From Pseudomonadota bacterium (lineage in GTDB: Bacteria > Pseudomonadota > Gammaproteobacteria > Xanthomonadales > Rhodanobacteraceae), in the NCBI GenBank assembly GCA_021793575.1, contig JAJYSM010000015.1:1-56719 (forward strand): DNA of 56,719 nt, read 5' to 3'. Numbering within the stretch: position 1 is the first letter of the stretch; each line of letters starts with the position of its first letter. The position numbers and the translations under genes are program-made. The notes below the pieces were generated by a model. It was given only the letters and a program-made list of their open reading frames with translations, was not told where the DNA came from and made no database searches. Positions 35,740 through 52,043 of the stretch are shown in pieces.

Positions 35740-36441
35740 ATGCGCATCCTGCTGGCCGAGGACGATCCTTCCATCGCCGAAGGCATCTGTGCGTCGCTGC
35801 GCCATGGCGGCCATGCGGTGGACCATGTGGCCAGCGGCAACCAGGCCGACAGCGCCCTGCACGATAACAATTACGACCTGCTGGTGCTGGATCTGGGCCT
35901 GCCTGGGCTGGACGGCAGCGAGGTGCTGCGGCGCCTGCGCGGCCGCGGCGGCAGCCTACCGGTGCTGGTGGTGACCGCCCGCGATGGCCTGCCCGAGCGC
36001 GTGCGCGTGCTCGACCTGGGCGCCGACGATTATCTGGTGAAGCCGTTTGCGCTGTCCGAATTCGAGGCGCGCGTGCGCGCGCTGCTGCGGCGGGCGAACA
36101 GCCAGGGCATGCCGGAGATGCAGCTGGGCCGGTTGCGGCTGGATCTTCCCGGCCACCGCGTGTGGATCGAGCAGACGCCGCTGGAACTCACCGCCCGTGA
36201 ATTCGGTCTGTTGGAGGCGCTTGCGCTGCGCGCCGACCGGGTCACCAGTCGGGCGCAGCTGATCGAGGCACTCTGCGACTGGGATCAGGAATTGACCGAC
36301 AACGGGCTGGACATCGCGATCCACCGACTGCGCCGCAAGCTGCACGGCAGCGGCACCGGCGTGCGCACGATCCGCGGCCTGGGCTACCTGCTGGAAGAAG
36401 CCGAACCCGCCGCCGAGGATTCCACTGGCGATCCGGCATGA
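35740..36441 (+). CDS. Two-component response regulator, OmpR family
   Basis: A 233-residue regulator. The receiver domain (1-115) has the acidic pair EDD (residues 7-9), phospho-acceptor Asp51 in LLVLDLGLPGLDG, and Lys101 in DDYLVKPF. The winged-helix output domain (about 125-220) includes LELTAREFGLLEALA and the recognition helix region LDIAIHRLRRKLHG with TIRGLGYLL. It resembles the QseB/TctD subgroup. The kinase gene overlaps its stop by four bases. Its place next to an efflux operon suggests that operon as a target. TAAACT at 35704-35709 may be its -10 element. Confidence 0.95.
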   Translation: MRILLAEDDPSIAEGICASLRHGGHAVDHVASGNQADSALHDNNYDLLVLDLGLPGLDGSEVLRRLRGRGGSLPVLVVTARDGLPERVRVLDLGADDYLVKPFALSEFEARVRALLRRANSQGMPEMQLGRLRLDLPGHRVWIEQTPLELTAREFGLLEALALRADRVTSRAQLIEALCDWDQELTDNGLDIAIHRLRRKLHGSGTGVRTIRGLGYLLEEAEPAAEDSTGDPA

Positions 36442-37838
36442 GCGGCCTGCGCCCCAGCCTGCGCCGGCGGCTGCTGCTGTTTCTGCTGATTCCGATGGCC
36501 GCGCTGCTGGTGCTGGATGCAGGACTGACCTACGGCGTGGCACTGAGCTACGCCAACCGCGTGCACGACCGCGATCTCAGCGACGATGCGCTGACCCTGG
36601 CGAAGATGCTGGGCAACGCGCAGCTGGGCAGCGAACTGTCGCCGCAGGCACGCTTCCTGCTCGAATACGACCCGGTCGGGCACAGCTATTTCAGCGTGCG
36701 CAGCAGTCAGCGCGGCCTGCTCGCGGGCAACCCGCAGCTGCCACAGCCGGCGCATGCTCCACCGCTGGATGCGGCGCCGATGCTGTTCGACACCCAGCTG
36801 GGCAAACACGTCCTGCGCGCGGCCACCATTCACACGCTGGCGCATCGCGGTCCTGGCGACAGCCTCACCATCACGGTGGCTGAAACCCTGCGCGACCGTC
36901 ATCAGCAGGCGCGCGAGATCCTGCTGCTGGCCACGGTGATGCAGACCTTGTTGCTGATCTGCGTGCTGTCGCTGGTGTGGTTCGGGGTCAATCACGGGCT
37001 GCGCGTGCTCGATCCGCTGACCGCCCGGCTCGCCGCCCGCTCGCACGAGCTGACGCCGATCGGGCGCGACGACGTGCCGCAGGAAATCCTGCCGCTGACG
37101 CGCACCATCGACGCCCTGTTCGGTCGCCTGCGCAGCATGCTGGCGCTGCACGACCGCTTCATCGCCGACGCCGCGCACCAGCTGCGCACGCCGCTGGCGG
37201 GGCTGAGCCTGCACGTCGAGCGGGCGCTGGCCGATCCGCGCCCGGAGACGGTGGCCGACGCGCTGGCGCACATCCACCGGCTGACCCAGCGCGCAGCGCG
37301 CACGTCGTCGCAGCTGCTGGCGCTGACCCGCGCCCAGGCCGCGCCTGTGGATGCGGTGGATCGCAGCCTGCTGGATCTGAGCCGGCTGATTCCGGAGGCG
37401 GTTTCGCTGCGCGTGCATGAGGCGCTGGTCGCCGGCGTGGATCTCGGCTACCAGGGGCCGCAGCAGCCGCTGTACATCATCGGCGACGCTGCCTGCGTGC
37501 ACGATCTGCTGGACAACCTGATCGACAACAGCATCCGCTACGCCGGCCGCGGCAGCAGCGTCACCGTCACCCTGCAGCCGCACGTCAATGGCGGCGTCAG
37601 CCTCAGCGTGGAAGACGACGGTCCGGGCGTGCCGCCCGCCCTGCTGCCGCGTCTGAGCGAACGCTTTTTCCGCGCCCCCGGCAGCAGCGAGGACGGCAGC
37701 GGGCTGGGGCTGGCGATCGTGCAGCGGATCGCCGAACGGCATCACGCCGAGGTGATCCACCAGCTCGGCGAAGTGCGCGGCCTGTGCGTGGAGGTGCGCT
37801 TCCCGGCGGCACCGCCCGCCGCGACGCGAACCACATGA
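36438..37838 (+). CDS. Sensor histidine kinase, TctE/QseC type
   Basis: A 466-residue membrane kinase. The first membrane helix is near residues 12-33 (LLLFLLIPMAALLVLDAGLT), a periplasmic domain of about 130 residues (2CSK_N-like, with YDPVGHSYFSVRSSQRGLL) follows, and the second helix is at about 160-180. The H-box FIADAAHQLRTPLAGL carries phospho-acceptor His247. The ATPase lobe shows DLLDNLIDNSIRYAG, VEDDGPGVPP and GSGLGLAIVQRIAERH. The tricarboxylate-sensor-like input domain hints at a small-molecule signal. It is co-transcribed with the regulator. Confidence 0.94.
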   Translation: MSGLRPSLRRRLLLFLLIPMAALLVLDAGLTYGVALSYANRVHDRDLSDDALTLAKMLGNAQLGSELSPQARFLLEYDPVGHSYFSVRSSQRGLLAGNPQLPQPAHAPPLDAAPMLFDTQLGKHVLRAATIHTLAHRGPGDSLTITVAETLRDRHQQAREILLLATVMQTLLLICVLSLVWFGVNHGLRVLDPLTARLAARSHELTPIGRDDVPQEILPLTRTIDALFGRLRSMLALHDRFIADAAHQLRTPLAGLSLHVERALADPRPETVADALAHIHRLTQRAARTSSQLLALTRAQAAPVDAVDRSLLDLSRLIPEAVSLRVHEALVAGVDLGYQGPQQPLYIIGDAACVHDLLDNLIDNSIRYAGRGSSVTVTLQPHVNGGVSLSVEDDGPGVPPALLPRLSERFFRAPGSSEDGSGLGLAIVQRIAERHHAEVIHQLGEVRGLCVEVRFPAAPPAATRTT

Positions 37839-38009
37839 GGCATTCCGTCACGACAGTCGCACACGCTGCATGTACGCTTGCACGGATGAAGTCTTGCGTC
37901 TGCGTCCGTTCTCCCCACAATAACCGACGATCCCGCCGTGGCCGCGCTCCGCGATGACCGTCACCCATACCCACCTGGCGTCGCAACGCCGGGTCATCGC
38001 CCTGGAAAG

Positions 38010-39488
38010 ATGCAGACCGTGTCAGTTCGCCCATTGAGCAACCCAGCCTTCGGCAATCTGCTGCGCGGCGGCCTGATCGGCCTGCTGCTCGGCACGCTGG
38101 CGGGCTGCGCCGCACCGCTGCCTCGGCTCAAGCCGCCACTGCCCGCGCAGTGGCAGCATGCGATCGCCTCCGATCCGGCCAAGCCCACCGATCTGCACGG
38201 CTGGTGGCACGCATTCGGCGATCCGCAGCTCGATGCGCTGGTCGATCGCGCACTCACCGACAATCTGGATGTGGCGCAGGCGGTCGAGCGGCTGCGCGGC
38301 GTGCGCGCGATGCAGCGGCGCGCGCATGCGCGCTACCTGCCGAAGCTCGATTTCAACACCAACCAGGCGATCGACCCGGATGCCAGTGCTTCGTTCTTCG
38401 ACGTCGGCTTCGACTCAACCTGGGAACTGGGCGTGTTCGGCCGCGCCGAGGGCACCCGGCGTGAATCGCAGGGCGCGCTGGATGCCAGCGTCGCCGACCT
38501 GCGCGCCGCGCAGGTCTCGCTGGTGGCCGAGGTGGTGCGCGAGTGGATCGACCTGCGCACCGCGCAGCAGCAGGCGCAGCTGCTGGCGCAGATCAGCCAC
38601 GCCCGCCAGCAGGACTGGCAGCTGCTGCAGGTGCGCGAGCGTCTGCAGCTGATCGCACCGGCCGCGGTAGACCAGGCGCAGGCCGCGTTCGCCCAGGCCG
38701 AGGCGGCGCTGGCGGCACCGCGTCAGGCGATCAATGCCAGCGCGCAGCAGCTGGCCGTGCTGCTGGGCCGGAACCATCCCGACCCGGCCTGGCTGCAGCC
38801 CGGCAAGCCGCCCGAGCTGGGCGCCTGGCAGCTCGACGGCACACCGGCCGAGCTGCTGCGCACGCGGCCGGAAATCGCTCGCGCCGAGGCGGACGTGCTG
38901 AGCAGTGCCGGTGAGCTGGCGCTGGCGCATGCCAACCTCTATCCCAGCGTGGGGCTGGGCGCGTCGCTGGTGTGGGCGACCGATCTCAACAACAACCGCA
39001 GGCGCACCGTCTCCAACGGCCTGATTTCGGCCGGCCCCATGCTGGATATCCCGCTGTTCGACTGGGGCATGCGGCTGGCCGCCGAGCATGCCAAGGACCA
39101 CCAGCTCAAAGCCAGCGTGCTGGCCTACCGGCAGGCCGTGCTGCGCGGCGTGGCCGAGGTGGAAACCGCGCTCGGCAGCCTCGATCAGCAGCAGCAGCGT
39201 GAACAGCACAGCCGGCTCGCCTGGCAGGCCTTGCAGCGCTCCGATCGCGCCGTGCAGACCCGCGTCGACCTGCGCCTGAGCAGCCCGCTGGATCGCGTGC
39301 AGAGCCAGCTCGCCGCCGACCAGGCTGCGATCGAACTGGCCGACGCCCGCGCCGCCCACAGCCTGGCCTACGTGGCGCTGTTCAAGGCACTGGGCGGCGC
39401 GCCGCTGCCAGCGAACGAAGCGCCGCCAGCGGCCGCCGCATCCACCCCCGCAGCGGCCACGGTGCCGGCCGCCGGGACGCAGCGCTGA
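38010..39488 (+). CDS. Outer-membrane efflux lipoprotein (NodT/OprM family)
   Basis: A 492-residue TolC-type channel lipoprotein. A signal ending in the lipobox LAGC precedes WWHAFGDPQLDALVDRALTD, the standard start of the first repeat. The second repeat is marked by RTRPEIARAEADVLSSAGEL and LDIPLFDWGMRLAAEHAKDH. A Pro/Ala-rich tail ends the protein. It should form the outer-membrane exit of a tripartite pump with the ABC permease/ATPase and HlyD-like adaptor encoded next. ATG 38010 has a GGAAAG site. Its stop overlaps the permease start (TGATG). Confidence 0.92.
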   Translation: MQTVSVRPLSNPAFGNLLRGGLIGLLLGTLAGCAAPLPRLKPPLPAQWQHAIASDPAKPTDLHGWWHAFGDPQLDALVDRALTDNLDVAQAVERLRGVRAMQRRAHARYLPKLDFNTNQAIDPDASASFFDVGFDSTWELGVFGRAEGTRRESQGALDASVADLRAAQVSLVAEVVREWIDLRTAQQQAQLLAQISHARQQDWQLLQVRERLQLIAPAAVDQAQAAFAQAEAALAAPRQAINASAQQLAVLLGRNHPDPAWLQPGKPPELGAWQLDGTPAELLRTRPEIARAEADVLSSAGELALAHANLYPSVGLGASLVWATDLNNNRRRTVSNGLISAGPMLDIPLFDWGMRLAAEHAKDHQLKASVLAYRQAVLRGVAEVETALGSLDQQQQREQHSRLAWQALQRSDRAVQTRVDLRLSSPLDRVQSQLAADQAAIELADARAAHSLAYVALFKALGGAPLPANEAPPAAAASTPAAATVPAAGTQR

Positions 39489-40618
39489 TGGTGGCCCTGG
39501 CGCGCAAGACGCTGATCTACGAATGGCGGCGCTTTCTGCCGGCGATGCTGGCGGTGGGTTTCGCCGGGCTGCTGCAGCTGCTGCAGATCGCGCTGGTGCT
39601 GGGCATCTTCGGTAGCACCAGCCTGTACATCACCGGCTCGTCGGCCGACGTGTGGGTCGGCTACCCCGGCACCCAGAGCGTGGGTCAGGGCCGCTCGATC
39701 GACGCCGACGTGGCGTCGCGCATCCTGATGGATCCCGCGGTCGAGCGCGTGGAGCAATACCTGTGGGTCGACGGCGACTGGCGCGGCCCGCGCGAAACCG
39801 GCGGCCTGTCGGTGTTCGTCTCCGGCATCGACCCGAGCGCGAACGGCCTGATGTTTTCCAAGGCGCTGCCACCGGACTTGCGCCAACGGCTGGCCGAGCC
39901 CGATGCGATCATCGTGGACCGCTCCGACCTGCAACAGCTGGGCGTCAGCCTCGGCCAGCGCGCCACCATCAACGGTCATGCGGTGCGGGTGGTCGGCATC
40001 AGCAAGGGGCTGCGCGCGCTCGGCGGCGTCAACGTGCTGTGCTCGCTGGAAACCGCGCGGCGGATCGACAACGATCCCACCGACAACGGCCCCACCTACC
40101 TGGTGGCCAAGCTGCGCGATCCGGCCCAGGCCGACGCGGTTGCCGCACGCCTGCGCGGCGACACTGCGTTCGGCCCGTACACCACATGGAGTGCCAGCGA
40201 TTTTGCCAGCCGCTCCGTGCGCTACTGGATGTTCGATACCGGCGCGGGCGCCGGTGTGCTGTTTCTGGCCGGCATTGTGTTTCTGGTCGGTGCGGTGATC
40301 ACCAGCCAGACCCTGATTGCCGCGGTGAACGGCTCGGTGCTGGAGTACGCCACGCTCAACGCGCTGGGCGTGGGCGTGGCGGCGCTGCGCCGGGTGGTGC
40401 TGGAACAGGCCTTCTGGGTAGGCGCACTGGGACTGCTCGGCGCCGGTCTGCTCGGCATCGTGCTGCTGTTGCTCGCGCGCAGCCAGAACGTGCCGGTGGT
40501 GCTGAACCTGCCGGCGGCGCTGGCCTGCATTGCGCTGGTGATGGGGCTGGCCGCCGTATCCGGGCTGGCCGCCATGCGCAGCCTGCGCCGCGCCGATCCT
40601 GCCACGCTGCTGAGATAA
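39488..40618 (+). CDS. ABC transporter permease, FtsX/DevC-like
   Basis: A 376-residue permease with an N-terminal membrane helix (PAMLAVGFAGLLQLLQIALV), a periplasmic domain of about 200 residues (ITGSSADVWVGYPGTQSVGQ onward), and three C-terminal helices (about 250-275, 310-330 and 340-360), ending SLRRADPATLLR. This is the MacB/FtsX type-VII-like fold, closest in layout to DevC of DevBCA exporters, which lack a fused ATPase. Such systems drive substrates from the periplasm through a TolC channel rather than pumping them across the inner membrane. Confidence 0.9.
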   Translation: MVALARKTLIYEWRRFLPAMLAVGFAGLLQLLQIALVLGIFGSTSLYITGSSADVWVGYPGTQSVGQGRSIDADVASRILMDPAVERVEQYLWVDGDWRGPRETGGLSVFVSGIDPSANGLMFSKALPPDLRQRLAEPDAIIVDRSDLQQLGVSLGQRATINGHAVRVVGISKGLRALGGVNVLCSLETARRIDNDPTDNGPTYLVAKLRDPAQADAVAARLRGDTAFGPYTTWSASDFASRSVRYWMFDTGAGAGVLFLAGIVFLVGAVITSQTLIAAVNGSVLEYATLNALGVGVAALRRVVLEQAFWVGALGLLGAGLLGIVLLLLARSQNVPVVLNLPAALACIALVMGLAAVSGLAAMRSLRRADPATLLR

Positions 40619-40623
40619 CCGGG

Positions 40624-41376
40624 ATGCCGACTGCCAGCGCCATCGAATCCACCGTCCAACCCGCCCTGCGCGCCGAGGCCGTATGCAAGGCCTTCGTCTC
40701 CGGCCGGCAGCGCACGCAGGTGCTGGCCGGGCTCTCGCTCAGCATCAATGCCGCCGAGCTGACGCTGATCTCCGGCCCCTCCGGCTGCGGCAAGAGCACC
40801 CTGCTGGCGGTGCTCAGCGGGCTGCAGAAGATCGACAGCGGGCGCGTGCTGGCGCTCGGCAGCGAGCTGGGCCAGCTCGACCTGCGCGCGCTGGAACGCT
40901 TCCGCCTGCAGCACACCGGCTTCGTGTTCCAGGGCTTCAACCTGTTTCCCGCGCTGAACGCGTTCGAGCAGGTCGAGTTGCCGCTGAGCCATATGGGCAT
41001 GTCGCGCGACGAGGCGCGCGCGCGCGCGCGTCGCTCACTGGAAGAAGTCGGTCTGGCCCATCGCATGAAGCTGCGGCCGTCCGAGTTGTCCGGTGGCGAG
41101 AAGCAGCGCGTGGCGATCGCCCGCGCGCTGGCGAAGGAGCCGGAGCTGCTGTTCGCCGACGAGCCGACCAGCGCGCTGGACGCCGCCAACGGGCAAATGA
41201 TCATCGACATCCTGCACCGCATCGCCCACACGCATGGCACCACCGTGCTGTGCGTGAGCCACGATCCCCGCCTCGTCATTCACGCCGACCGCGTGCTGGC
41301 GATGGAAGACGGCCGCATCCTCAGCGACCGGCGCAACCATGCGCCGATCATCGACAGCAAGGAAATCCCCTCATGA
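40624..41376 (+). CDS. ABC transporter ATP-binding protein, MacB/DevA-like
   Basis: A 250-residue ATPase. Walker A is GPSGCGKSTLLAVLSG, the Q-loop FVFQGFNLFPALNAFEQ, the signature motif LSGGEKQRVAIARAL, Walker B ELLFADEPTSALD, and the H-loop VLCVSHDPRL. These features and the gene order place it in the LolD/MacB/DevA group that partners FtsX-like permeases. It starts five bases after the permease and its stop overlaps the adaptor start (ATGA). Confidence 0.95.
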   Translation: MPTASAIESTVQPALRAEAVCKAFVSGRQRTQVLAGLSLSINAAELTLISGPSGCGKSTLLAVLSGLQKIDSGRVLALGSELGQLDLRALERFRLQHTGFVFQGFNLFPALNAFEQVELPLSHMGMSRDEARARARRSLEEVGLAHRMKLRPSELSGGEKQRVAIARALAKEPELLFADEPTSALDAANGQMIIDILHRIAHTHGTTVLCVSHDPRLVIHADRVLAMEDGRILSDRRNHAPIIDSKEIPS

Positions 41377-42353
41377 AGCCGCCCCTCATGCAAGCGCCCG
41401 CAGCGCATCGGTCATCGCCGACGCGGGCCACGCTGACGACGCGCTCGCTGCGGCTCGGCTGCATCGCCCTGACGACGGCGTGGCTGCTGGCAGGCTGCTC
41501 GAAGCAGCCAGCGACGACGCCCGCCGCGGCGACCGTGCCCAGCCCGGCCTACGCCGCGGTGGCGCGTGGCAAGGTCGACATCGAAGGCGGCCTGCTGTCG
41601 CTGTCGATGCCGCGCGAAGGCACGCTGAGCAAGGTCACCGTGCACGAGGGCGACCGCGTCAAGCAGGGTCAGCTGCTGGCCATGCTCGACCCCGAGCCGG
41701 CCAGGCTGGCCGTCGGTGCGGCCCAGGCCGCGCTGCAGCAGTCGCAGGCACAGCTGGAGCTGGTCGCGATCAAGCAGGTCGCCGCCAGGCAGCGTGCCCA
41801 GCGGCTGCAGGCCGCGGTGGCCGCCGGCGCCGGCGATGGCCAGAGCGCCGACGATGCGCGTGAACTGGCGGCGCAGCTCGACGCCGAGGAAGCCGCTGGC
41901 CGCGCCGCCATCAGCATGGCCACCCAGAAACTGGCCGAAGCGCGCTACGAGTTGAAGCAGCGCAGTCTGCTGGCGCCGTTCGACGCCGAGGTCGTGCACG
42001 TGATGGCGCAGCCCGGTGCCAGCGTTTCGCCCAGCTCCGGTCCGCTGTTCACCCTGCTGCCGGACAAGCCGCGCATCGTTCGCGCCGAACTCAACGAGAG
42101 TTTTGTCGGCGTGATCCATCCGGGCATGCACGCCGAGGTGGTGGCCAACAGCGACAACCAGTCGGCGCACTGGAGCGCACATGTGCTGCGCATCGGCGCG
42201 ATCTACGGGCCGGCCACGCTGGATAACGATCCGCAGGTCCGCGCCAACGCGCGCACGGTGGAATGCGTGCTGGCCTTCGACCAGCCGCAGCACCTGCGCA
42301 TCGGCCAGCGCGTGGTGGTGCGCTTCGACGCCAGCGCCCCCCCGAAAGACTGA
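41373..42353 (+). CDS. HlyD/RND-type periplasmic adaptor, predicted lipoprotein
   Basis: A 326-residue membrane-fusion protein. The N-terminus has a hydrophobic stretch ending in the lipobox LLAGC, so it is probably a lipoprotein rather than helix-anchored. The lipoyl half (SMPREGTLSKVTVHEGDRVK) is followed by a long alpha-helical hairpin (about 105-190) and the second lipoyl half (APFDAEVVHVMAQPGASVSP). The beta-barrel region ends in LRIGQRVVVRFD. It links the ABC permease to the outer-membrane channel. Confidence 0.9.
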   Translation: MKPPLMQAPAAHRSSPTRATLTTRSLRLGCIALTTAWLLAGCSKQPATTPAAATVPSPAYAAVARGKVDIEGGLLSLSMPREGTLSKVTVHEGDRVKQGQLLAMLDPEPARLAVGAAQAALQQSQAQLELVAIKQVAARQRAQRLQAAVAAGAGDGQSADDARELAAQLDAEEAAGRAAISMATQKLAEARYELKQRSLLAPFDAEVVHVMAQPGASVSPSSGPLFTLLPDKPRIVRAELNESFVGVIHPGMHAEVVANSDNQSAHWSAHVLRIGAIYGPATLDNDPQVRANARTVECVLAFDQPQHLRIGQRVVVRFDASAPPKD

Positions 42354-42425
42354 GGAAACCGCGCCCTGCCACGCTTTCCGGCAATGTGAGCCGCCGTGGC
42401 GGCTCCTCCTGCACAGGGCTACGGC

Positions 42426-43262
42426 GTGATTCAGCAGACCGATTTTTTCTTCGAGGGTGGACGCAGCGGCGTGCTGCTGATCCACGGCCTCACCGGCACG
42501 CCGATGGAAATGCGCCTGCTCGGCAAGGGCCTGAACCGCGCCGGTTTCACCGTGCATGGCATGCAGCTGGCCGGCCACTGCGGCAATGTCGAGGATCTGC
42601 TCGCCACCGGCTGGCGCGACTGGTATGCCAGCGTCGAGCAGGCGGCCGATGAACTTTTGCACAAGGTCGATCACCTGTTCGTCGGTGGCCTGTCGATGGG
42701 CGCGCTGCTGGCGCTGAAGCTGGCCGCGGACCGGCCGCAGCAGATCGCCGGCGTGGGCGTGTATGGCGCCACCTTCCGCTACGACGGCTGGAGCATCCCG
42801 CGGCTGGCGCGGCTGGCATTCATGCTGCCGCTGCTGAAAAAGCTCGGCATCGGCCGCGGGCGCAGCTTCATGGAGCAGCCGCCCTACGGCATCCGCGACG
42901 AGCGCCTGCGCGCGCAGATCAGCACCGCCATGCTCAGCGGCGACAGCGCTGCGGCCGGGCTGCCCGGCAACCCGTGGTACTCGCTCGCCGAGCTGTACGG
43001 CCTGGCCGCCGAAGTCCGCCGTCAGCTGCCGCAGGTGACCGCGCCGTGCCTGGTCGCACACGCCAGCGAGGACGACGTGGCCAGTCTCAGGAACGCCGAG
43101 CTGGTGGTGCGCGAAGTCAGCGCGCCGGCCGAGCTGCTGCTGCTCAAGGACAGCTACCACATGATCACCATCGACCGCGAACGGCGCACCCTGATCGAAC
43201 GCTCGGCGGCGTTTTTCGACAGCATCGCGGCCGCCGATACCATCCAGCGCGTCGCCGCCTGA
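42426..43262 (+). CDS. Alpha/beta hydrolase, carboxylesterase/lipase-like
   Basis: A 278-residue serine hydrolase. GVLLIHGLTGTPMEMRLLG gives the oxyanion HG motif, the nucleophile elbow is GGLSMGALLAL, the acid is in AHASEDDVAS, and the histidine in KDSYHMITIDRERR. The pattern resembles the Est30/monoacylglycerol lipase group, which favours short acyl chains. The GTG at 42426 has an AGGG site; a GTG at 42396 would add ten residues. Within this operon it might release or trim an acyl product, or act as a type II thioesterase for the ACP encoded at 47.3 kb. The last two ideas are inference. Confidence 0.88.
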   Translation: MIQQTDFFFEGGRSGVLLIHGLTGTPMEMRLLGKGLNRAGFTVHGMQLAGHCGNVEDLLATGWRDWYASVEQAADELLHKVDHLFVGGLSMGALLALKLAADRPQQIAGVGVYGATFRYDGWSIPRLARLAFMLPLLKKLGIGRGRSFMEQPPYGIRDERLRAQISTAMLSGDSAAAGLPGNPWYSLAELYGLAAEVRRQLPQVTAPCLVAHASEDDVASLRNAELVVREVSAPAELLLLKDSYHMITIDRERRTLIERSAAFFDSIAAADTIQRVAA

Positions 43263-45275: not shown

Positions 45276-45276
45276 A

Positions 45277-46158
45277 TCAGCGAGACCGCGCCCCGATCGC
45301 CGCCAGCAGCTGCAGATTCAACGCATGCTGCTGCGTCTGCCAGCCGACCAGCTGGGCGGGATCGATCGCCGGCTGTTCGTCCATCGCGGAGAGTCGGCGC
45401 TTCCACCAGCTCTGGTACTGGTAGTGCGAGACCTCGCCGTTGATGTCGCTGCCGATCAGGCCGTGACGCAGGCTGGCGATCAGCGCCAGCGCATGTTCGG
45501 TCAGCAGCTGCCCTTGATCCCAGTTGGTGTGCGCCACTTCCGCTGCAAACACGTCCTTGTCGATGCTGAGGTAGCTGGGTGCAGTCTGCGCGCGCTGCAA
45601 TTCGACGAACGCGTCGACCAGTGCCGCCGGCGTGTCGAAGCCGCGGAACGCGTGCCCCAGGCCGAGCCGGCGCGCCCAGCCGGTGTCCACGCCGATGTTC
45701 CAGTAGGTCAGCCGGCCGCGCAGCAGCGGGGTGAGGTAGTTCTCCCACGCATGGCCGCCGCCGATGTCGGCCGAGGTGATGCCCAGCACATGTACGTGGC
45801 TGACCATCGGCAACGCAGCTACGCGGCGCACCCACGAGCCGCAGTGCACGCCAAACGGAAAGCGCATGTTGTCGGGGTGGTTGTCCAGCACCACGACCTG
45901 GAATCTTGTGCCCGGTTGCAGCCTGGCGATCAGCGGCCAGCTGAGGTGGTGGAAGTCGCCGCTGCCGGTGAACACGGTGCCGTACTGCGCCGGCAGCAGC
46001 TCGTCCAGCATCGTGCGGAAGCGCCGCAGGGTCGCCAGCGAGCAGCCGAAGCGGATCGACTCCTGCCAGTGTTCCAGCGGCAGCACCAGCCGATCCGGCA
46101 GCGGCCCGACCGAGCGGTCGATGTCCAGCACCACGGGGCGATGCGGCAACTCATTCAT
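45277..46158 (-). CDS. UPF0489/ureohydrolase-like metal hydrolase
   Basis: A 293-residue protein with the metal-site pattern of the arginase/deacetylase superfamily: GSGDFHHLSW (residues 66-75), the DxHxD motif VVVLDNHPDNM (Asp92, His94, Asp96), SYLSIDKDVF (Asp200, Asp202) and GLIGSDINGE near residue 245. This matches the UPF0489 group (C5orf22-like), some of which are now called peptide arginases. A manganese-dependent guanidine or amide hydrolase is expected. It overlaps the upstream GNAT-like gene by 8 bases. With no precursor peptide visible, the substrate may be a small molecule made by the locus. Confidence 0.75.
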   Translation of the reverse strand: MNELPHRPVVLDIDRSVGPLPDRLVLPLEHWQESIRFGCSLATLRRFRTMLDELLPAQYGTVFTGSGDFHHLSWPLIARLQPGTRFQVVVLDNHPDNMRFPFGVHCGSWVRRVAALPMVSHVHVLGITSADIGGGHAWENYLTPLLRGRLTYWNIGVDTGWARRLGLGHAFRGFDTPAALVDAFVELQRAQTAPSYLSIDKDVFAAEVAHTNWDQGQLLTEHALALIASLRHGLIGSDINGEVSHYQYQSWWKRRLSAMDEQPAIDPAQLVGWQTQQHALNLQLLAAIGARSR

Positions 46159-47218
46159 CGGCGGACTCCTGCGCCTGCCATTGGCGATCGCTTTCGAAAT
46201 GCCCGCCGAGCCGGCGCAGCAGCGCGCGCAGCAGCGGGTTGCGCGCATACACCGCGTGGCGAGTGAAAGTCATCCGCGCGCCGAGGAAGGATTTCACTTC
46301 CGGGTCGGTCCAGCCGGCCACGTAATGGCTGAGGCCGCGCTGCCGCGCGTGGTCGAGATTGTGCATCCAGCTGACGAAATACAGGTTGTGCTGGCGCGCC
46401 TGCGGGTAGGCAAAACCCACGTACTTGTCGACCAGCTTGCCGCCGTATTCGTAGCAGAGGTTCCAGCCGATCATCTGCCCGGCGTGGCGATACACGAACA
46501 CCACCCCGCCGCTGTCGGCGTCCTGCAGCAGCGCCTGGAAAAACGCTGCGCTGAGACGGTCGAAGTGGATCTCGCTTTGCGCGTAGACGTTGTCGAACAA
46601 CGCGTAGAACTCGGCCAGCGTGGCCGCGCTGGCGAAACGCGGGTCGCCGGTGCGCACCGTCTCGATCTCCAGCTCGGCGCGCGAACGCAGCTTGCGCCGG
46701 ATGTTCTTGCGCCGCCCCGAAGAGAGCCGCGCCAGATACTCATCGTCCGAGCCGAAGTCGATCGGCACCCACGCCAGCGCCTGGCCTTCCAGCAGCACGT
46801 AGCCCGCCGCCGCGCAGGCGCTGGCGAAGGCGCGCGCGTGGCCGTTGTCGACATCAGTCAGCAGCGGCGAATCCTGCGCGATGTCCTTCACGATCAGCAG
46901 CCGGCATTCGCGTCCGTAGGCGGCCTTCAGCCCCTGCGCCAGCGCGGTCGGCGTGATCGCAGCGGGCAGCGGCGCGTATTCGGACACGGTGGTGCCGGCA
47001 AAGCGCGTGCGCCAGCGCAGCAGGCGACCCCACCAACGGTACAGCGGCAGGCCGGTGACGCGCCGGCGCAGCGCATCGTCGGCGGTGGTCAGCAGATCGA
47101 ACGGCGCGGCGAAGGTCGGCATGCCCTGCGGCGACAGCTCCACGGCAAAGTCCAGCGGCGGCTGCGCCATGAAGTGCGCCAGCAGCGCATCGGGTTCCAG
47201 TTGTGAAATGAAAGGCAT
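46151..47218 (-). CDS. FemAB/GNAT-like acyl- or aminoacyl-transferase (Acetyltransf_6)
   Basis: A 355-residue protein of the peptidogalycan-biosynthesis/Acetyltransf_6 type. The C-terminal GNAT half includes LARLSSGRRKNIRRKLRSRA, EFYALFDNVYAQSEIHFDRL, GVVFVYRHAGQMIGWNLCYE and KLVDKYVGFAYPQARQHNLY, the last being typical of FemAB-like transferases. The ending TRHAVYARNPLLRALLRRLG is basic. Substrates of this family include aminoacyl-tRNA and acyl-ACP or acyl-CoA. Its divergent placement next to an ACP gene makes an acyl-ACP donor attractive. ATG 47218 is used; the frame is open to 47257. Confidence 0.8.
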   Translation of the reverse strand: MPFISQLEPDALLAHFMAQPPLDFAVELSPQGMPTFAAPFDLLTTADDALRRRVTGLPLYRWWGRLLRWRTRFAGTTVSEYAPLPAAITPTALAQGLKAAYGRECRLLIVKDIAQDSPLLTDVDNGHARAFASACAAAGYVLLEGQALAWVPIDFGSDDEYLARLSSGRRKNIRRKLRSRAELEIETVRTGDPRFASAATLAEFYALFDNVYAQSEIHFDRLSAAFFQALLQDADSGGVVFVYRHAGQMIGWNLCYEYGGKLVDKYVGFAYPQARQHNLYFVSWMHNLDHARQRGLSHYVAGWTDPEVKSFLGARMTFTRHAVYARNPLLRALLRRLGGHFESDRQWQAQESADE

Positions 47219-47283: not shown

Positions 47284-47556
47284 ATGAACGATACGACCGA
47301 ACAACAGGTATTCGAGATCATCGCCAAGCAGGCCAAGATCCCGGTGGAAAACATCAAGCCCGAGTCCACCCTGAAGGATCTGGGGGTGGCGTCGCTGGAA
47401 GCAATCGAGGTGATCTTCGACATCGAGGAGCATTTCAACATCACCTTCCCCGACCAGCAGGGCGCCAACTTCGACACCGACACGGCGCAGAGCTTGGTCG
47501 ATGCGGTGCGCCAGGGGCTGGCCGCCAAGGCCGCCGCGGGCGAAGGATCGAAGTAA
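47284..47556 (+). CDS. Stand-alone acyl carrier protein
   Basis: A 90-residue acidic carrier. The phosphopantetheine serine is Ser37 in LGVASLEAIEVIFDIEEHFN, followed by ITFPDQQGANFDTDTAQSLV. The motif is VASLE rather than the DSLDxVE of housekeeping AcpP, marking it as a dedicated carrier. ATG 47284 follows AAGGA at a good distance; an upstream ATG at 47251 would add 11 residues. The stop overlaps the ketosynthase start (TAATG), so the pair is made together. Confidence 0.92.
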   Translation: MNDTTEQQVFEIIAKQAKIPVENIKPESTLKDLGVASLEAIEVIFDIEEHFNITFPDQQGANFDTDTAQSLVDAVRQGLAAKAAAGEGSK

Positions 47557-48788
47557 TGCGCAACCCCACGATGCGGCGCGTCGCGATCACCGGCATGGGC
47601 GCGATCAGCCCGCTCGGCGTGGGCGCCGAGGCGCTGTGGCAGGGCCTGCGCGAGGGCCGCAGTGCGATCGGCCCGCTGCGCCACCCGGATGCCGGGCGGC
47701 TGCGCGTGAAGATCGCCGCGCAGGTGCCGGCCAATTTCGATCCGGCCGCACAGATCGACGAGCGCACCCTGCCGCTGCTCGACCGCACCTCGGAGTTCGC
47801 GCTGCACGCCGCGCGCGAGGCGATCACGCAGTCCGGGCTGGATTTCAGCCGCAACGAACTGGGCCTGCGCACCGCCGTGATCGTCGGCACCGGCGTCGGC
47901 GGCGAGACCACCCAGGACGAACAGAGCCGACGGCTGTACGCGGACAACGCCACCCGCGTGCACCCGTTGTCCATCGTGCGGTTGATGACGAACGCCTCGG
48001 CAAGCCAGATCAGCATCGCCTGGGGCCTGCGCGGGCCGACCTTCGCGGTCGCCAGCGCCTGCGCCTCGGCCAACCACGCGATCATCCAGGCGGCGCAGAT
48101 GATCCGCTACGGGCTGGCCGATGTGGCGATTGCCGGCGGCACCGAGGCATGTCTGACCTACGGCGCGCTGCGCGCATGGGAAGCGATGCGCGTGCTGGCC
48201 GACGATACCTGCCGCCCGTTCAGCGCCAACCGTCACGGACTGGTGCTCGGCGAGGGCGCCGGCATCTTCGTGCTGGAATCGATGGAGCATGCGCAGGCGC
48301 GCGGCGCGGTGATCTTGGCCGAGCTGGCCGGCACCGGCATGACCGCCGACGCCACCGACATCGTGATGCCCAGCGCCACCGGCGCCGCTGCCGCGATGAC
48401 GCAGGCGCTGGCCGATGCCGGCCTGACCGCGCAGGATGTGGACTACATCAACGCCCACGGCACCGGCACCCAGGCCAACGACGTCACCGAGACGAAGGCC
48501 ATCCGGCTCGCGTTCGGTGCGCATGCCGATCGTCTCGCTGTGTCGTCGACCAAGTCGATGCATGGACATGCGCTGGGCGCCTCCGGCGCGCTGGAGCTGG
48601 TGGCGGTGGTCGGCGCGCTGCGCGACAGCGCGGTGCCGCCGACCGCGAATCTGGATCAGCCCGATCCCGCCTGCGATCTGGACTACGTGCCCAACGTGGC
48701 GCGCGACATGCCGGTGCGCGCCGCGCTGAGCAACTCGTTTGCCTTCGGCGGACTCAACGCGGTGCTGGCTCTGAAGCGCGCACCGTAA
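47556..48788 (+). CDS. Beta-ketoacyl-ACP synthase (FabF-like ketosynthase)
   Basis: A 410-residue KAS II-type condensing enzyme with a complete Cys-His-His triad: Cys169 in AVASACASANHAI, His301 in YINAHGTGTQAND and His338 in SMHGHALGASGALE. The GMGAISPLGVGAEALWQGLR start and the NSFAFGGLNAVL ending are family features. It should extend an acyl chain on the adjoining ACP by malonyl condensation. No ketoreductase, dehydratase, acyltransferase or ligase is nearby, so either the beta-keto product is used directly or housekeeping Fab enzymes finish the cycle. Confidence 0.94.
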   Translation: MRNPTMRRVAITGMGAISPLGVGAEALWQGLREGRSAIGPLRHPDAGRLRVKIAAQVPANFDPAAQIDERTLPLLDRTSEFALHAAREAITQSGLDFSRNELGLRTAVIVGTGVGGETTQDEQSRRLYADNATRVHPLSIVRLMTNASASQISIAWGLRGPTFAVASACASANHAIIQAAQMIRYGLADVAIAGGTEACLTYGALRAWEAMRVLADDTCRPFSANRHGLVLGEGAGIFVLESMEHAQARGAVILAELAGTGMTADATDIVMPSATGAAAAMTQALADAGLTAQDVDYINAHGTGTQANDVTETKAIRLAFGAHADRLAVSSTKSMHGHALGASGALELVAVVGALRDSAVPPTANLDQPDPACDLDYVPNVARDMPVRAALSNSFAFGGLNAVLALKRAP

Positions 48789-48816
48789 AAACGCTGCGCC
48801 CGCAGGAGCGCAACCC

Positions 48817-48890
48817 TGTGGAAGCGGCTTCAGCCGCGATGCTTTTTCCACCAGGATCCGAAAGCATCGCGGCTGAAGCCGCTCCCACAA
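48817..48890. repeat. REP inverted pair (copy 4)
   Basis: TGTGGAAGCGGCTTCAGCCG (48817-48836, with GATGC after) pairs with GCATCGCGGCTGAAGCCGCT (48864-48883, then CCCACA). It lies between the convergent ketosynthase and aminotransferase genes and probably ends both transcripts. Confidence 0.9.
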
Positions 48891-48941
48891 AAAAGTGCGC
48901 GCATACCACCAGGGTGTGCTCGACAGGGGCCGCTTTCAGGA

Positions 48942-50342
48942 TCAGCCCTTCTTGGCCTTGGTCAGCAGCTGGTCGAGCAGACTGATCGCCAGGTCGATTT
49001 CTTCGTGGGTGATGTTGAGCGACGGCGCGAACGTGATCACGTTCTTGTACCAGCCGCCCACGTCCAGCACGAGGCCGATCTTCTTGCCGTTGTGCTCGAG
49101 GTCGCCGGCCAGGCCGATGTCGACCATCGTGTCCAGCAGCGCCTTGTTCGGCGTGAAGCCGTCATCGGTGCAGATCTCGGCGCGCAGGGCGAGACCGAGG
49201 CCGTCGACGTCGCCGATTTCCTTGTGCCGCTTCTGCAGGTCGCGCAGGCCGTCGAGGAAGTGCGCGCCCTTCTCCGGCACGGTGCGCTCGTAGTCGAGCT
49301 CGTAGCCCATCTTGATCACTTCGAGACCGAGCGCGGTGCCCAGCGGATTGGAGTTGAACGTCGAGTGGGTGGAGCCCGGCGGGAAGATCGTGGGGTTGAT
49401 CAGTTCCTCGCGCGCCCACAGCCCGGACAGCGGATTGAGGCCGTTGGTGAGTGCCTTGCCGAATACCACCACGTCCGGCGTCACGCCGAAATGCTCAATT
49501 GACCACAGCTTGCCGGTGCGCCAGAAACCCATCTGGATCTCGTCCACCACCATCAGGATGCCGTACTGGTCGAGCACCTTCTTCAGGTCCTTGAAGAAGT
49601 TCATCGGCGGGATCACGTAGCCGCCGGTGCCCTGGATCGGCTCGATATAGAACGCCGCGTATTCACACTGGTTGGTCTTCGGGTCCCACACGCCGTTGTA
49701 TTCGGTCTCGAACAGGCGCGCGAACTGGTTCACGCAGCTGTCGGAGTATTCCTCCGCCGTCATGCCCTTGGGCCGGCGGAACGGGTACGGGAACGGCAGG
49801 AACATCGCGCGCTCGCCGAAGTGACCGAAGCGGCGGCGGTAGCGGTAACTGGAGGTGATCGCCGAGGCGCCGAGCGTGCGGCCGTGATAGCCGCCCTCGA
49901 AGGCGAACATCAGGCTCTTGCCGTGCTTGTAGTTGCGCACCAGCTTGAGCGAATCCTCGATCGCCTGCGCGCCGCCCACGTTGAAATGCACGCGACCGTC
50001 GAGGCCGAACTTCCTCTTCGCATCCAGCGCCACCGTCTTGGCCAGCTCGATGCGGGTCTGGTGCAGGTACTGGCTGGCGACCTGCGGCAGGCGGTCGATC
50101 TGCTCCTTCAGCACATTGTTGAGGCGCTGGTTGCCGTAGCCGAAGTTGACCGCCGAATACCACATCTGCAGGTCGAGGAACGGCGTGCCGGCCGTGTCGT
50201 ACATGTAGCTGCCTTCGCCGTGGCGAAAGATCTTCGGCGGGTCGACGTAGTGGACGGTGTCGCCAAAGGAGCTGTACTTCGCTTCGTCGGCGAGCAGCTG
50301 CGCGTCGTCGATGAAGCCGGCGGCGGTCTTGTCGATTTTCAT
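48942..50342 (-). CDS. Class III PLP aminotransferase
   Basis: A 466-residue fold-type I aminotransferase. Cofactor motifs are HFNVGGAQAIEDSLKLVRNY, FEGGYHGRTLGASAIT, VVDEIQMGFWRTGK (cofactor Asp) and Lys296 in VVFGKALTNGLNPLSG. Class III enzymes use omega-amines and amino acids such as ornithine, diaminobutyrate or beta-alanine. It may make the amine part of the product of this locus or convert a keto or aldehyde intermediate. The ATG at 50342 fits the family; the frame continues upstream into the phosphatase gene region. Confidence 0.92.
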   Translation of the reverse strand: MKIDKTAAGFIDDAQLLADEAKYSSFGDTVHYVDPPKIFRHGEGSYMYDTAGTPFLDLQMWYSAVNFGYGNQRLNNVLKEQIDRLPQVASQYLHQTRIELAKTVALDAKRKFGLDGRVHFNVGGAQAIEDSLKLVRNYKHGKSLMFAFEGGYHGRTLGASAITSSYRYRRRFGHFGERAMFLPFPYPFRRPKGMTAEEYSDSCVNQFARLFETEYNGVWDPKTNQCEYAAFYIEPIQGTGGYVIPPMNFFKDLKKVLDQYGILMVVDEIQMGFWRTGKLWSIEHFGVTPDVVVFGKALTNGLNPLSGLWAREELINPTIFPPGSTHSTFNSNPLGTALGLEVIKMGYELDYERTVPEKGAHFLDGLRDLQKRHKEIGDVDGLGLALRAEICTDDGFTPNKALLDTMVDIGLAGDLEHNGKKIGLVLDVGGWYKNVITFAPSLNITHEEIDLAISLLDQLLTKAKKG

Positions 50343-50397
50343 GCGGTGATCCGGGGAGGGAAATTGGGGCAGAAGTGAACGATGGAGCTGGCGTGGC

Positions 50398-51120
50398 TCA
50401 AGCGGCGGCCGGCTCGTGATGGCGATGGCTGGCCAGACTGCCGTCGAGCAGCTTCGGCAGGAACTCCAATGCATCCTCGAAACCGGTGATCGGCACGTAG
50501 TCGATGCCGGCGGCGCGGCAATGCTCGATCAGGCGGTGCTTGGCAAACACGAAATCGACGCGGTCGGCGGCGCAGAAATCCGAGGCACCGTCGCCGATCA
50601 GGAGGGTCTTGGTAGCCCCGGCGGCACGCGCCTGCGCCACGCAGGCGCACTTGCAGGTGCCGCTGCGGCAACCTTCGGCCTGGAACGGCGAGGTCAGCTG
50701 CCACTGCTTCGGCGGCTCGGCCGGCGCCAGGTGGTTGGCCGCCAGCGGCAGGTCGTCCAGCCCGTAGCGACCGAGAATCTGGTGGATCGCGTAGTCGAGG
50801 CCGTCGCTGACCACGCGAATCGGCACGTTCAGCGCGCGCGCCTTCGCCACGAAGCCCGGAAACGCGTGATCGATCCACAGCCCGGCCAAGTGCGCGTCCA
50901 GCTGCGGGCGCGTCATCTGCAGCAGATCGACCTGGCCCGACATGCACTCGCGCGAGCCGATGCGACCGGCGCGCCAGTCCTGCTCCAGCACTTCCCAGCC
51001 GGGCCGGCCGAAGCGGTCGAGCAGCGAGTCGATCACGTCCTCGACGGAGATGGTGCCGTCGAAATCACACAGGATGGTCCAGCCGGACGCAGGCATCGGC
51101 AACTCGTTCGTGAGATTCAT
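50398..51120 (-). CDS. HAD-IB phosphatase, SerB/MtnX-like
   Basis: A 240-residue HAD phosphatase. Motif I is ILCDFDGTISVEDVIDSLLD (nucleophile Asp and acid Asp), motif II VPIRVVSDGLDYAI, and motif III with IV LLIGDGASDFCAA. A Cys-rich cap segment (GCRSGTCKCACV) resembles the CxxC-type segment of MtnX-like enzymes. Substrates could be phosphoserine, a phosphorylated ketose or phosphocholine-like compounds. It precedes the class III aminotransferase by 55 bases on the same strand, so they are probably one operon; together they could turn a phosphorylated keto compound into an amino alcohol. Confidence 0.9.
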   Translation of the reverse strand: MNLTNELPMPASGWTILCDFDGTISVEDVIDSLLDRFGRPGWEVLEQDWRAGRIGSRECMSGQVDLLQMTRPQLDAHLAGLWIDHAFPGFVAKARALNVPIRVVSDGLDYAIHQILGRYGLDDLPLAANHLAPAEPPKQWQLTSPFQAEGCRSGTCKCACVAQARAAGATKTLLIGDGASDFCAADRVDFVFAKHRLIEHCRAAGIDYVPITGFEDALEFLPKLLDGSLASHRHHEPAAA

Positions 51121-51236
51121 GCGTGCAAGGTTAGAAAGCCTGTCTTTCGGCCTCCTTTCCCTCTCAGAACGGTGGCTGAGCAAGTCACGCCGCCGCATCA
51201 CACGAAGCACACCGTAAGCCCTTATGCTGCTGCTCC

Positions 51237-52043
51237 ATGAGTTCTCGCCGCACGCCGCCCCGCCCCATCCGCCCACGCTGGCCGCTGCTCTCGATCAGCA
51301 TGGCGGCGTGCCTGCTGTGGGCATCGGCCAGCGCGGCTGCCGAGCGCAGCCCGCTGATGCTGACGGTCGGCGCCGGCGTGCAGCGCCAGGGCACCTGGTT
51401 GGGTGCCAAAGGCATGCGCAGCGAGGCCCTTCCCTACCTCGACGTGGAGTGGGCGAATCACGTCAGCCTGTCCACGGTGGACGGGCTGCAGGTGGATTTC
51501 ATCCATGGCAAGGCCCTGCACGGCGGCATCTACGGCGATTACCAGTGGGGACGTACGCGCGAAGAGCTGGGTGCACTCGGCGGCACCGTCACCGCGCTGC
51601 CGCCGCGCTTCAATCTTGGCGGCTACCTCGAATGGCAGCTCACCGATCAGTTCGACCTCGGCACCGACCTCAGCCACGACATCAACGGCGCCGGCGGCTA
51701 CCTCAGCATCTACGCCGAATGGGACCTGCCCTCCATGGGCGTGGTCGAGCACTCCCTGCAACTGCGCTGGCAGGCGCTGAACAATGCGGCGATGAACCGC
51801 AACTTCGGCCTCAATTCCAGCCAGGCCAGCATGCTCAAGACGGACGCCTGGGACCCCGGCGCCGGCAGCGAGCTGGCCACACTGGAGTACGACGTGTTCG
51901 TGCCCACCAACCTGCACACCGGCCTGGCGCTGGGCCTGGTCTACGGACGCCTGCTCGGCAAGGCCGGCAACAGCCCGCTGGTGACCCGCTTCGGTTCGCG
52001 CCGGCAGCTCTCCGAATCGCTGGCGTTCGTGTATCACCTGTAA
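51237..52043 (+). CDS. MipA/OmpV-like outer-membrane protein
   Basis: A 268-residue exported protein with a twin-Arg-rich start and hydrophobic core LLSISMAACLLWASASAAAE (cleavage near ASAAA). The mature chain alternates polar and hydrophobic residues in beta-strands, with the MipA-type blocks LPYLDVEWANHVSLSTVDGL, GIYGDYQWGRTREELGALGG and SLQLRWQALNNAAMNRNFGL, and a terminal strand LSESLAFVYHL. It should be a small outer-membrane barrel. TATGCT nine bases before the ATG suggests a very short leader. It is divergent from the phosphatase gene. Confidence 0.75.
   Translation: MSSRRTPPRPIRPRWPLLSISMAACLLWASASAAAERSPLMLTVGAGVQRQGTWLGAKGMRSEALPYLDVEWANHVSLSTVDGLQVDFIHGKALHGGIYGDYQWGRTREELGALGGTVTALPPRFNLGGYLEWQLTDQFDLGTDLSHDINGAGGYLSIYAEWDLPSMGVVEHSLQLRWQALNNAAMNRNFGLNSSQASMLKTDAWDPGAGSELATLEYDVFVPTNLHTGLALGLVYGRLLGKAGNSPLVTRFGSRRQLSESLAFVYHL

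What the first reader, a model, noticed from the sequence alone, without database searches (positions are those of the whole stretch)
35740..52043. Candidate undescribed biosynthesis-and-export locus: ACP, ketosynthase, three kinds of PLP/hydrolase enzymes and a tripartite pump
Seen in sequence: a two-component system, then a tight eight-gene operon (outer-membrane lipoprotein, ABC permease and ATPase, adaptor, alpha/beta hydrolase, two small EMR proteins, DegT enzyme), then UPF0489-like and FemAB-like genes, an ACP and ketosynthase, a class III aminotransferase, a HAD-IB phosphatase and an outer-membrane barrel. Known for the families: ACP and ketosynthase make acyl chains, DegT and class III enzymes make amines, FemAB-like enzymes acylate or aminoacylate, and MacB/DevC-type pumps export periplasmic amphiphiles. 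Inference: the locus makes and exports an acylated amine or amino-sugar lipid. I know of no characterised pathway with this set.
Basis: partly seen in the sequence, partly recalled or inferred. Interest (0 to 1): 0.82.

Follow-up and report, generated by a model that had tools for sequence, protein, structure and literature searches.

The report
Conserved, unstudied envelope amine-lipid gene system
A block of about 17 neighbouring genes in a bacterium is a real, widely conserved and apparently unstudied system that probably builds an amine-decorated lipid and pumps it to the cell surface, and its most interesting part is an enzyme pair that could turn arginine into ornithine on that lipid.

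Summary
The gene set is really there (35740-52043) and is kept together far beyond the window's family. Of 147 family genomes, 62 carry orthologues of all six tested parts and 24 carry none. The set recurs in some Xanthomonadaceae, in Comamonas, Delftia and Pigmentiphaga, and on plasmids of Rhizobiaceae, Roseomonas and Xanthomonas sacchari.

Comparison changes the reading. The ketosynthase/ACP is not the core: its orthologue is missing from 15 of 18 relatives outside the family. What recurs is a HAD phosphatase, a class III PLP enzyme, a ureohydrolase (arginase fold, mislabelled UPF0489), a FemAB/MprF-like transferase, a serine hydrolase, two EamA half-transporters, often a two-component system, and a tripartite ABC pump and/or MipA. 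Acyl-tailoring genes differ by lineage: KS+ACP, cyclopropane synthase, desaturase, MBOAT.

Best explanation: an envelope aminolipid pathway in which FemAB transfers arginine and the ureohydrolase converts it to ornithine. The set and its linkage are shown; product, tRNA use and Arg-to-Orn are inferred. An amino-sugar lipid is not supported. My searches found no description of the set.

The parts
35740..36441 (+). OmpR-type response regulator; best NCBIfam scores PmrA/TctD/QseB, all below cut-off
   Evidence: linked regulators in L162, L165, L152 and on Rhizobiaceae plasmids
36438..37838 (+). sensor histidine kinase with 2CSK_N sensor domain
38010..39488 (+). outer-membrane efflux lipoprotein (NodT/TolC type)
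   Evidence: OEP PF02321; outer_NodT above cut-off, 217.3 vs 210.05
39488..40618 (+). ABC permease with MacB-type periplasmic domain plus FtsX domain; DevC-like but below DevC cut-off
   Evidence: 110 of 147 family genomes
40624..41376 (+). ABC ATPase, DevA/LolD/MacB type
41373..42353 (+). periplasmic adaptor, probably a lipoprotein (HlyD/RND-MFP type)
   Evidence: lipobox read by eye
42426..43262 (+). alpha/beta serine hydrolase (Hydrolase_4), GLSMG nucleophile motif intact
   Evidence: 122 of 147 family genomes
43265..43642 (+). small EamA/SMR half-transporter 1 (weak ArnE/ArnF similarity)
43639..44046 (+). small EamA/SMR half-transporter 2 (weak ArnF/EmrE similarity)
44067..45275 (+). DegT-family PLP enzyme; PLP lysine kept; only the N-terminal half matches DegT
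   Evidence: 93 of 147 family genomes
46151..47218 (-). FemAB-like transferase; model closest to MprF, FemX and aminoacyl-tRNA peptide synthases
   Evidence: found with the ureohydrolase in 112 of 112 loci chosen by the ureohydrolase
47284..47556 (+). dedicated acyl carrier protein (attachment serine invariant in 24 aligned)
47556..48788 (+). FabF-type ketosynthase with Cys-His-His; accessory module
48942..50342 (-). class III PLP enzyme (aminotransferase or racemase family)
50398..51120 (-). MtnX-like HAD-IB phosphatase (TIGR01489 above cut-off)
51237..52043 (+). MipA/OmpV outer-membrane barrel; heads the pump operon in L165 and ends 7 of 9 rhizobial loci

Best explanation
The block is a conserved system, often linked to two-component regulators, that makes and exports an amine-bearing amphiphile of the envelope. 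Proposed working: (1) the class III PLP enzyme and the HAD phosphatase supply a small amino (alcohol) head group. (2) An acyl chain is supplied by the cell's fatty-acid synthase and tailored by whatever the lineage carries: KS+ACP here, cyclopropane synthase, desaturase or MBOAT elsewhere. (3) The FemAB/MprF-like enzyme transfers an amino acid, proposed to be arginine from Arg-tRNA, onto the amphiphile. (4) The ureohydrolase removes urea, leaving ornithine, an amino acid that the genetic code cannot deliver. (5) The serine hydrolase trims or recycles acyl groups. (6) The paired EamA half-transporters flip the product and the ABC-adaptor-OM pump, with MipA, moves it outward. Shown: gene set, catalytic motifs, predicted folds, adjacency, co-inheritance, spread. 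Inferred: every chemical step, the product, and the order.
For: Co-inheritance in the family: ureohydrolase with DegT 85 both / 1 / 8 / 53 neither; KS with hydrolase 114/1/8/24; permease with hydrolase 109/1/13/24; 24 of 147 genomes lack all six. FemAB and ureohydrolase lie together in 112 of 112 non-redundant loci (chosen by the ureohydrolase), 109 of them adjacent on one strand; 98 of 100 genomes with the ureohydrolase have FemAB. The ureohydrolase metal ligands are invariant from Rhodanobacter to Rhizobium; the model's nearest folds are proclavaminate amidinohydrolase, metformin hydrolase, agmatinase and arginase. The FemAB model's nearest folds are the MprF synthase domain, FemX and aminoacyl-tRNA-dependent peptide synthases; 2 of 29 members weakly match the arginyl-tRNA-protein transferase domain. 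The core recurs with different acyl-tailoring genes. In Agrobacterium one run encodes HAD, PLP enzyme, ureohydrolase, EamA, hydrolase, FemAB, EamA and all four pump parts. Precedent: arginase-family enzymes make ornithine residues inside peptides (PMC12707348, PMC10028609; passages read).
Against: No step has biochemical evidence. FemAB-fold proteins can use other donors, and the ATE_C match is weak (2 of 29, best E 0.008). Seven g25 genomes have FemAB without a detected ureohydrolase. Eleven genomes have hydrolase, KS, permease and class III enzyme with no DegT, ureohydrolase or FemAB (in the one read, G017, the EamA pair, ACP, HAD and other pump genes are there too), so aminoacylation cannot be the whole function. 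14 of 86 genomes with the ureohydrolase lack the class III orthologue. Two-component genes are in only 26-29 of 86 full-length loci. MprF-type enzymes carry a flippase domain that this protein lacks (recalled). The lipid nature rests on neighbours, not on a measured product.
Confidence: 0.4

Rival explanations
1. Acyl-ACP-dependent N-acyl amine or amino-acid lipid: KS and ACP make a dedicated acyl-ACP, and the FemAB-like protein is an N-acyltransferase that attaches it to an amine made by the PLP enzymes (as the FeeM/FeeL pair does; recalled).
For: ACP and KS are in the same roughly 20 kb locus as FemAB in 62 of 86 full-length loci; KS and hydrolase are co-inherited 114/1/8/24; catalytic motifs kept in most orthologues.
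Against: The KS orthologue is absent from 15 of 18 genomes outside the family that have the ureohydrolase (some are MAGs), and 11 family genomes have KS without FemAB, ureohydrolase or DegT. FemAB's steadiest partner is the ureohydrolase.
Confidence: 0.22
2. Non-lipid guanidino or amine natural product (dipeptide-like metabolite or antibiotic) made by FemAB-type amide formation and ureohydrolysis and expelled by the pump.
For: Foldseek neighbours include aminoacyl-tRNA-dependent peptide synthases and proclavaminate amidinohydrolase; plasmid carriage and tripartite pump suit a secreted metabolite.
Against: Acyl-tailoring genes accompany the core in several lineages; presence in 10 of 11 searched genomes of the window's genus suits an envelope component better than a niche antibiotic.
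Confidence: 0.18
3. Amino-sugar (Arn-like) modification of lipid A or undecaprenyl lipids: DegT acts as ArnB and the EamA pair as ArnE/ArnF.
For: Weak ArnE/ArnF hits of the EamA pair and DegT family assignment; PmrA is the top regulator model; an ArnT-like protein lies about 27 kb away in the window.
Against: No ArnA/C/D equivalents at the locus; no sugar-nucleotide or glycosyltransferase family among the scanned recurring neighbours of 40 loci; no DegT annotated in the 9 Rhizobiaceae regions read nor found in 54 of 147 family genomes; all Arn and PmrA scores are far below cut-offs.
Confidence: 0.1
4. Several independent neighbouring operons (pump, TCS, PLP+HAD, lipid genes) that share a location only by common descent.
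For: Modules are separated in several genera.
Against: They co-occur even when separated and are found assembled in one locus in other orders and on plasmids.
Confidence: 0.08

Closest known systems
MprF / aminoacyl-phosphatidylglycerol synthases
   Same: FemAB model's top Foldseek hit is an MprF synthase domain; would aminoacylate a lipid
   Different: No fused flippase domain; separate EamA pair and ABC pump; paired with a ureohydrolase, which I know of in no MprF system (recalled)
Peptide arginases of UPF0489/PF12640 (OspR, BipC)
   Same: Ureohydrolase superfamily enzyme in a biosynthetic locus; DxHxD and metal ligands kept; would make Orn from Arg within a larger molecule
   Different: [quoted passage not shown] PF12640 matched by 1 of 29 at E 0.13; I did not search for a precursor peptide
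DevBCA-type glycolipid exporter / MacAB-TolC
   Same: DevC-like permease, DevA-like ATPase, adaptor and TolC-like OM factor in one operon (function of DevBCA recalled)
   Different: Scores below the DevA/B/C cut-offs; permease not fused to ATPase as in MacB
ArnBCADTEF polymyxin-resistance pathway
   Same: DegT enzyme, paired small EamA proteins, PmrA-like regulator
   Different: Nucleotide-sugar and transferase steps absent from the locus
Type II FAS/PKS initiation (FabF/ACP)
   Same: KS and ACP intact, FabF-like
   Different: Dedicated but accessory; KS orthologue missing from 15 of 18 relatives outside the family

Membership tests
UPF0489 / PF12640 peptide arginases | match to Pfam PF12640 | tested here: not met
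   1 of 29 members, E 0.13
[quoted passage not shown]
   GSGDFHH and SIDKDVF instead; motifs as given in PMC10028609 and PMC12703449
Ureohydrolase (arginase/agmatinase) superfamily | metal-coordinating His/Asp residues | tested here: met
   D92, H94, D96, D200, D202 and H70/H71 invariant in 29, 35 and 11 aligned sequences; aligned with arginase 6vsu
Ureohydrolase (arginase/agmatinase) superfamily | alpha/beta arginase fold | tested here: met
   predicted model pLDDT 90; the 50 listed hits are arginases, agmatinases and related hydrolases, best E 1.1e-7, TM about 0.4-0.6
Ureohydrolase (arginase/agmatinase) superfamily | Pfam PF00491 at gathering score | tested here: inconclusive
   29 of 29 match at E<=1; the window protein scores 21.0 against 22
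Ureohydrolase (arginase/agmatinase) superfamily | urea-releasing activity | not testable with these tools
   needs enzyme assay
FemABX / MprF aminoacyl-tRNA transferases | double-GNAT FemABX fold | tested here: met
   predicted model pLDDT 91; top Foldseek hits MprF, FemX, Sbb17/Sba18
FemABX / MprF aminoacyl-tRNA transferases | no conserved CoA P-loop (Q/RxxGxG/A) | tested here: inconclusive
   pattern in 9 of 36 sequences, 8 at about position 231-240 and 1 at 301; not conserved
FemABX / MprF aminoacyl-tRNA transferases | use of aminoacyl-tRNA | not testable with these tools
   needs assay
DevBCA-type ABC exporter | scores above DevA/DevB/DevC cut-offs | tested here: not met
   216.2/295.8, 54.8/129, 84.0/290.35 bits
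Tripartite ABC exporter (works like) | separate ATPase, MacB_PCD/FtsX permease, adaptor, OM factor in one operon | tested here: met
Arn amino-sugar pathway | nucleotide-sugar and transferase genes (ArnA/C/D/T) in the locus | tested here: not met
   none among locus genes or the scanned recurring neighbours; an ArnT-like protein lies about 27 kb away, its linkage not tested

The most novel reading that the evidence does not exclude
Bacteria of at least two proteobacterial classes, some on plasmids predicted to be conjugative, carry a dedicated system that arginylates a membrane amphiphile from Arg-tRNA with a stand-alone FemAB enzyme and then hydrolyses the lipid-linked arginine to ornithine with a lipid-acting ureohydrolase, before export by a tripartite pump. 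It would be a new route to ornithine-headed lipids, independent of OlsAB/OlsF (recalled), and, as far as I know, the first ureohydrolase that acts on a lipid.
Probability: 0.25. Interest if true: 0.9.

Novelty: new variant of a known kind. Interest (0 to 1): 0.72.

Why it matters
A multi-gene system whose ureohydrolase is present in 21 of 26 sampled genera of one family, and which also occurs in rhizobia, Agrobacterium, Comamonas and Roseomonas, appears to have no described function. If it makes an ornithyl or other aminoacyl lipid, it adds an unknown determinant of surface charge and envelope chemistry, extends ureohydrolases from free metabolites and peptides to lipids, and shows such a pathway carried on plasmids. 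The presence/absence pattern across 147 genomes gives natural knock-outs for comparative lipidomics.

Tried and rejected
UPF0489 assignment: rejected. KS/ACP as the core: rejected. Amino-sugar lipid: not supported; of 13 unlabelled neighbour families present in 4 or more of 40 loci, I scanned 11 and found no sugar-nucleotide or glycosyltransferase family (one phosphodiester glycosidase, in 4 loci); the other two look like antisense frames and were not scanned. Phage-defence reading: no PADLOC hit for 10 proteins. The order-wide draw found the ureohydrolase in 28 of 151 genomes, in families f1 and f2 only, and the class-wide draw in 1 of 274. PDB searches for DegT and the class III enzyme gave only broad family matches; the nearest for the class III enzyme include amino-acid racemases, so 'aminotransferase' is itself uncertain. 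The FemAB profile found no PDB chain by sequence. Fisher tests ignore phylogeny and thresholds differ by gene, so I do not use the p-values.

Literature searched in the open-access library only. For PMC12707348, PMC10028609 and PMC12703449 I saw passages only; the other papers only as listings with abstract starts.
Full report
Observation. The window is one whole contig (C105) of a 3.2 Mb assembly. The eight-gene + strand run from the outer-membrane lipoprotein (38010) to DegT (45275) has gaps of -4 to +72 bases. The ureohydrolase and FemAB genes overlap by 8 bases, ACP and KS by 1. Motifs for KS (Cys, His, Lys-His), ACP serine, PLP lysines, HAD DxD and hydrolase GLSMG are present in the window proteins. 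In the orthologue sets of that call they are present in most members (for example KS Cys motif 37 of 39, DegT lysine 59 of 59, HAD DxD 29 of 32, class III lysine 11 of 12).

Correction. The 'UPF0489-like' protein is a divergent ureohydrolase. All 29 aligned homologues match Arginase PF00491 at E<=1 (the window protein at 21.0 bits, just under the 22-bit gathering score) and 1 of 29 matches UPF0489 at E 0.13. It has GSGDFHH, DNHPD and SIDKDVF where UPF0489 peptide arginases have EEH(N/H)EAF, DxHxD and LDIDLDYFSC (motifs from passages of PMC10028609 and PMC12703449). The D-x-H-x-D and D-x-D metal ligands and the GSGDFHH histidines are invariant among 11 sequences from Rhodanobacter-type to Rhizobium and Roseomonas and align with arginase 6vsu. 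A model (pLDDT 90) is closest to proclavaminate amidinohydrolase, agmatinases, metformin hydrolase and arginase. RefSeq records name it arginase or arginase family protein on several plasmids.

FemAB partner. It matches FemAB_like PF04339 in 29 of 29 and, weakly, the arginyl-tRNA-protein transferase domain in 2 of 29 (best E 0.008). That domain is also found in leucyl-transferases (recalled), so it does not identify the amino acid. Its model (pLDDT 91) is nearest to MprF synthase domains, FemX and aminoacyl-tRNA-dependent peptide synthases; human ATE1 is at rank 42. FemAB and ureohydrolase are the tightest pair: both in 112 of 112 non-redundant loci (selected by the ureohydrolase), adjacent on one strand in 109 and separated by two genes of the same run in the other three (126 loci before removal of redundancy). 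In whole genomes FemAB (profile, E<=1e-30) occurs in 105 of 147 and the ureohydrolase (single protein, E<=1e-10) in 100; 98 have both. The two with ureohydrolase only have it within about 1.4 kb of a contig start. The seven with FemAB only are all g25; around FemAB in six of them no ureohydrolase was found by profile; the seventh, G025, was not examined.

Co-inheritance in the family. The same 147 genomes were searched for six proteins: ureohydrolase 86 close plus 14 distant, DegT 93, class III enzyme 96, permease 110, KS 115, hydrolase 122. 62 have all six and 24 have none. Close ureohydrolase/DegT: 85 both, 1 and 8 alone, 53 neither. KS/hydrolase: 114, 1, 8, 24. KS/permease: 109, 6, 1, 31. 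Class III/hydrolase: 96, 0, 26, 25. Ureohydrolase/class III is looser: 72, 14, 24, 37. Parts co-occur even when split, for example ureohydrolase and DegT about 42-56 kb apart in six g11 genomes. The class III enzyme and permease lie within 10 kb in 70 of 84. These counts ignore phylogeny and use a different E-value limit for each gene.

Modules. Of 86 non-redundant loci of about 20 kb around the ureohydrolase, 86 have FemAB, 68 each EamA, 66 DegT, 65 hydrolase, 62 ACP and KS, 53 class III, 51 HAD, 36-38 the pump genes, 26 RR, 29 HK, 25 MipA. Eleven genomes have KS, hydrolase, permease and class III without DegT, ureohydrolase or FemAB; in the one read (G017) hydrolase-EamA-EamA-ACP-KS form one run and the pump, HAD and class III another. 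Two g25 genomes have EamA-EamA-DegT-hydrolase-ACP-KS. L165 shows MipA heading the pump operon beside HAD and class III. One Xanthomonadaceae locus (L152) is a single + strand run hydrolase-EamA-EamA-DegT-HAD-class III-FemAB-ureohydrolase behind the two-component genes.

Beyond the family. In an order-wide draw the ureohydrolase was in 28 of 151 genomes, only in f1 and f2. In Comamonas and Delftia (L146, L137) the pump, HAD, hydrolase, EamA pair, DegT, ureohydrolase, FemAB and class III enzyme sit together with a cyclopropane-fatty-acid synthase (Pfam CMAS, E 8.8e-90 and 9.6e-86). Of 18 genomes outside the family that have the ureohydrolase (11 reached through loci titled Comamonas, Delftia, Pigmentiphaga, other Burkholderiales or plain Proteobacteria, several of them MAGs; 7 Xanthomonadaceae), the KS orthologue (67-68% identity) is in 3; 14 others show only 37-45% paralogues and one nothing at the limit. 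The permease orthologue (53-61%) is in 17. On plasmids the ureohydrolase has hits in 46 records and FemAB in 44; I read 13 regions. All 9 Rhizobiaceae regions (two from one strain) have HAD, class III, arginase, EamA (called permease in two), hydrolase, FemAB/GNAT, EamA in that order with two-component genes; a desaturase lies within 6 of them, a cyclopropane synthase follows in 4, MipA follows in 7, and the two others (Agrobacterium) have TolC, permease, ATPase and adaptor there instead. X. sacchari carries nearly the whole window-type set on a plasmid, without MipA and with the permease match in two pieces. Bartonella has class III-FemAB-ureohydrolase with an MBOAT acyltransferase nearby but no other core gene in the stretch read. 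Aureimonas and Roseomonas have a variant with another class III enzyme and a sigma-54 regulator.

Reading. The recurring part is an amine-handling and transport core; the acyl-tailoring genes change with the lineage. This argues for a lipid or lipid-like product and against KS/ACP as the defining step. FemAB plus ureohydrolase suggests aminoacylation with arginine and conversion to ornithine, which tRNA cannot deliver. This parallels peptide arginases, which do it within peptides (passages read). The class III enzyme (nearest solved relatives include amino-acid racemases) with HAD may supply an amino-alcohol head group. The hydrolase could trim acyl groups, and the EamA pair and pump would export. 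All chemistry is inference. The genomes without FemAB/ureohydrolase show that this decoration is optional.

Known or not. Searches of the open-access library found no paper on this gene combination. Subscription papers and preprints were not searchable, so a description may exist elsewhere.

Noticed in passing
window 14695-16845 and 17359-19611: Two tandem M13-family metallopeptidases, 73% identical, with a small helix-turn-helix protein gene (16917-17270) between them.
   Followed up: partly
window 10596-12296: ArnT-like glycosyltransferase (Arnt_C E 3e-22) about 27 kb from the locus; possible link to an Arn-like pathway not tested across genomes.
   Followed up: no
window 20043-27244: Type IV minor pilin block (GspH-like, PilY1, ComP-like pilin) in a lower-GC stretch of the window (about 0.59-0.64 per kb), perhaps acquired.
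   Followed up: no
L128 10818-18762: In a Pigmentiphaga genome a cyanophycin synthetase-like gene and a DUF1854/ABC pair lie between the ureohydrolase and DegT; cyanophycin contains arginine (recalled).
   Followed up: no
L056 7079-9521 and L174 14900-17422: An MBOAT acyltransferase with a partner gene lies next to the ureohydrolase in two distant lineages (L056: Pfam MBOAT E 8.9e-33, partner without a Pfam match; L174: annotated).
   Followed up: partly
L165 14992-18081 (similar genes in L162): The two-component genes adjoin PepSY_TM, DUF4198 and ApbE genes, which suggests a link of the regulator to a second, perhaps iron or redox related, gene set.
   Followed up: partly
L175 19597-21987: In the X. 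sacchari plasmid record the permease and OM factor match in two pieces each and no permease is annotated; possibly a broken pump.
   Followed up: no
G146 and 23 other genomes: One genome of the window's own genus (G146) and 23 others show none of the six tested parts at the limits used: possible clean losses suited to comparative lipidomics.
   Followed up: partly
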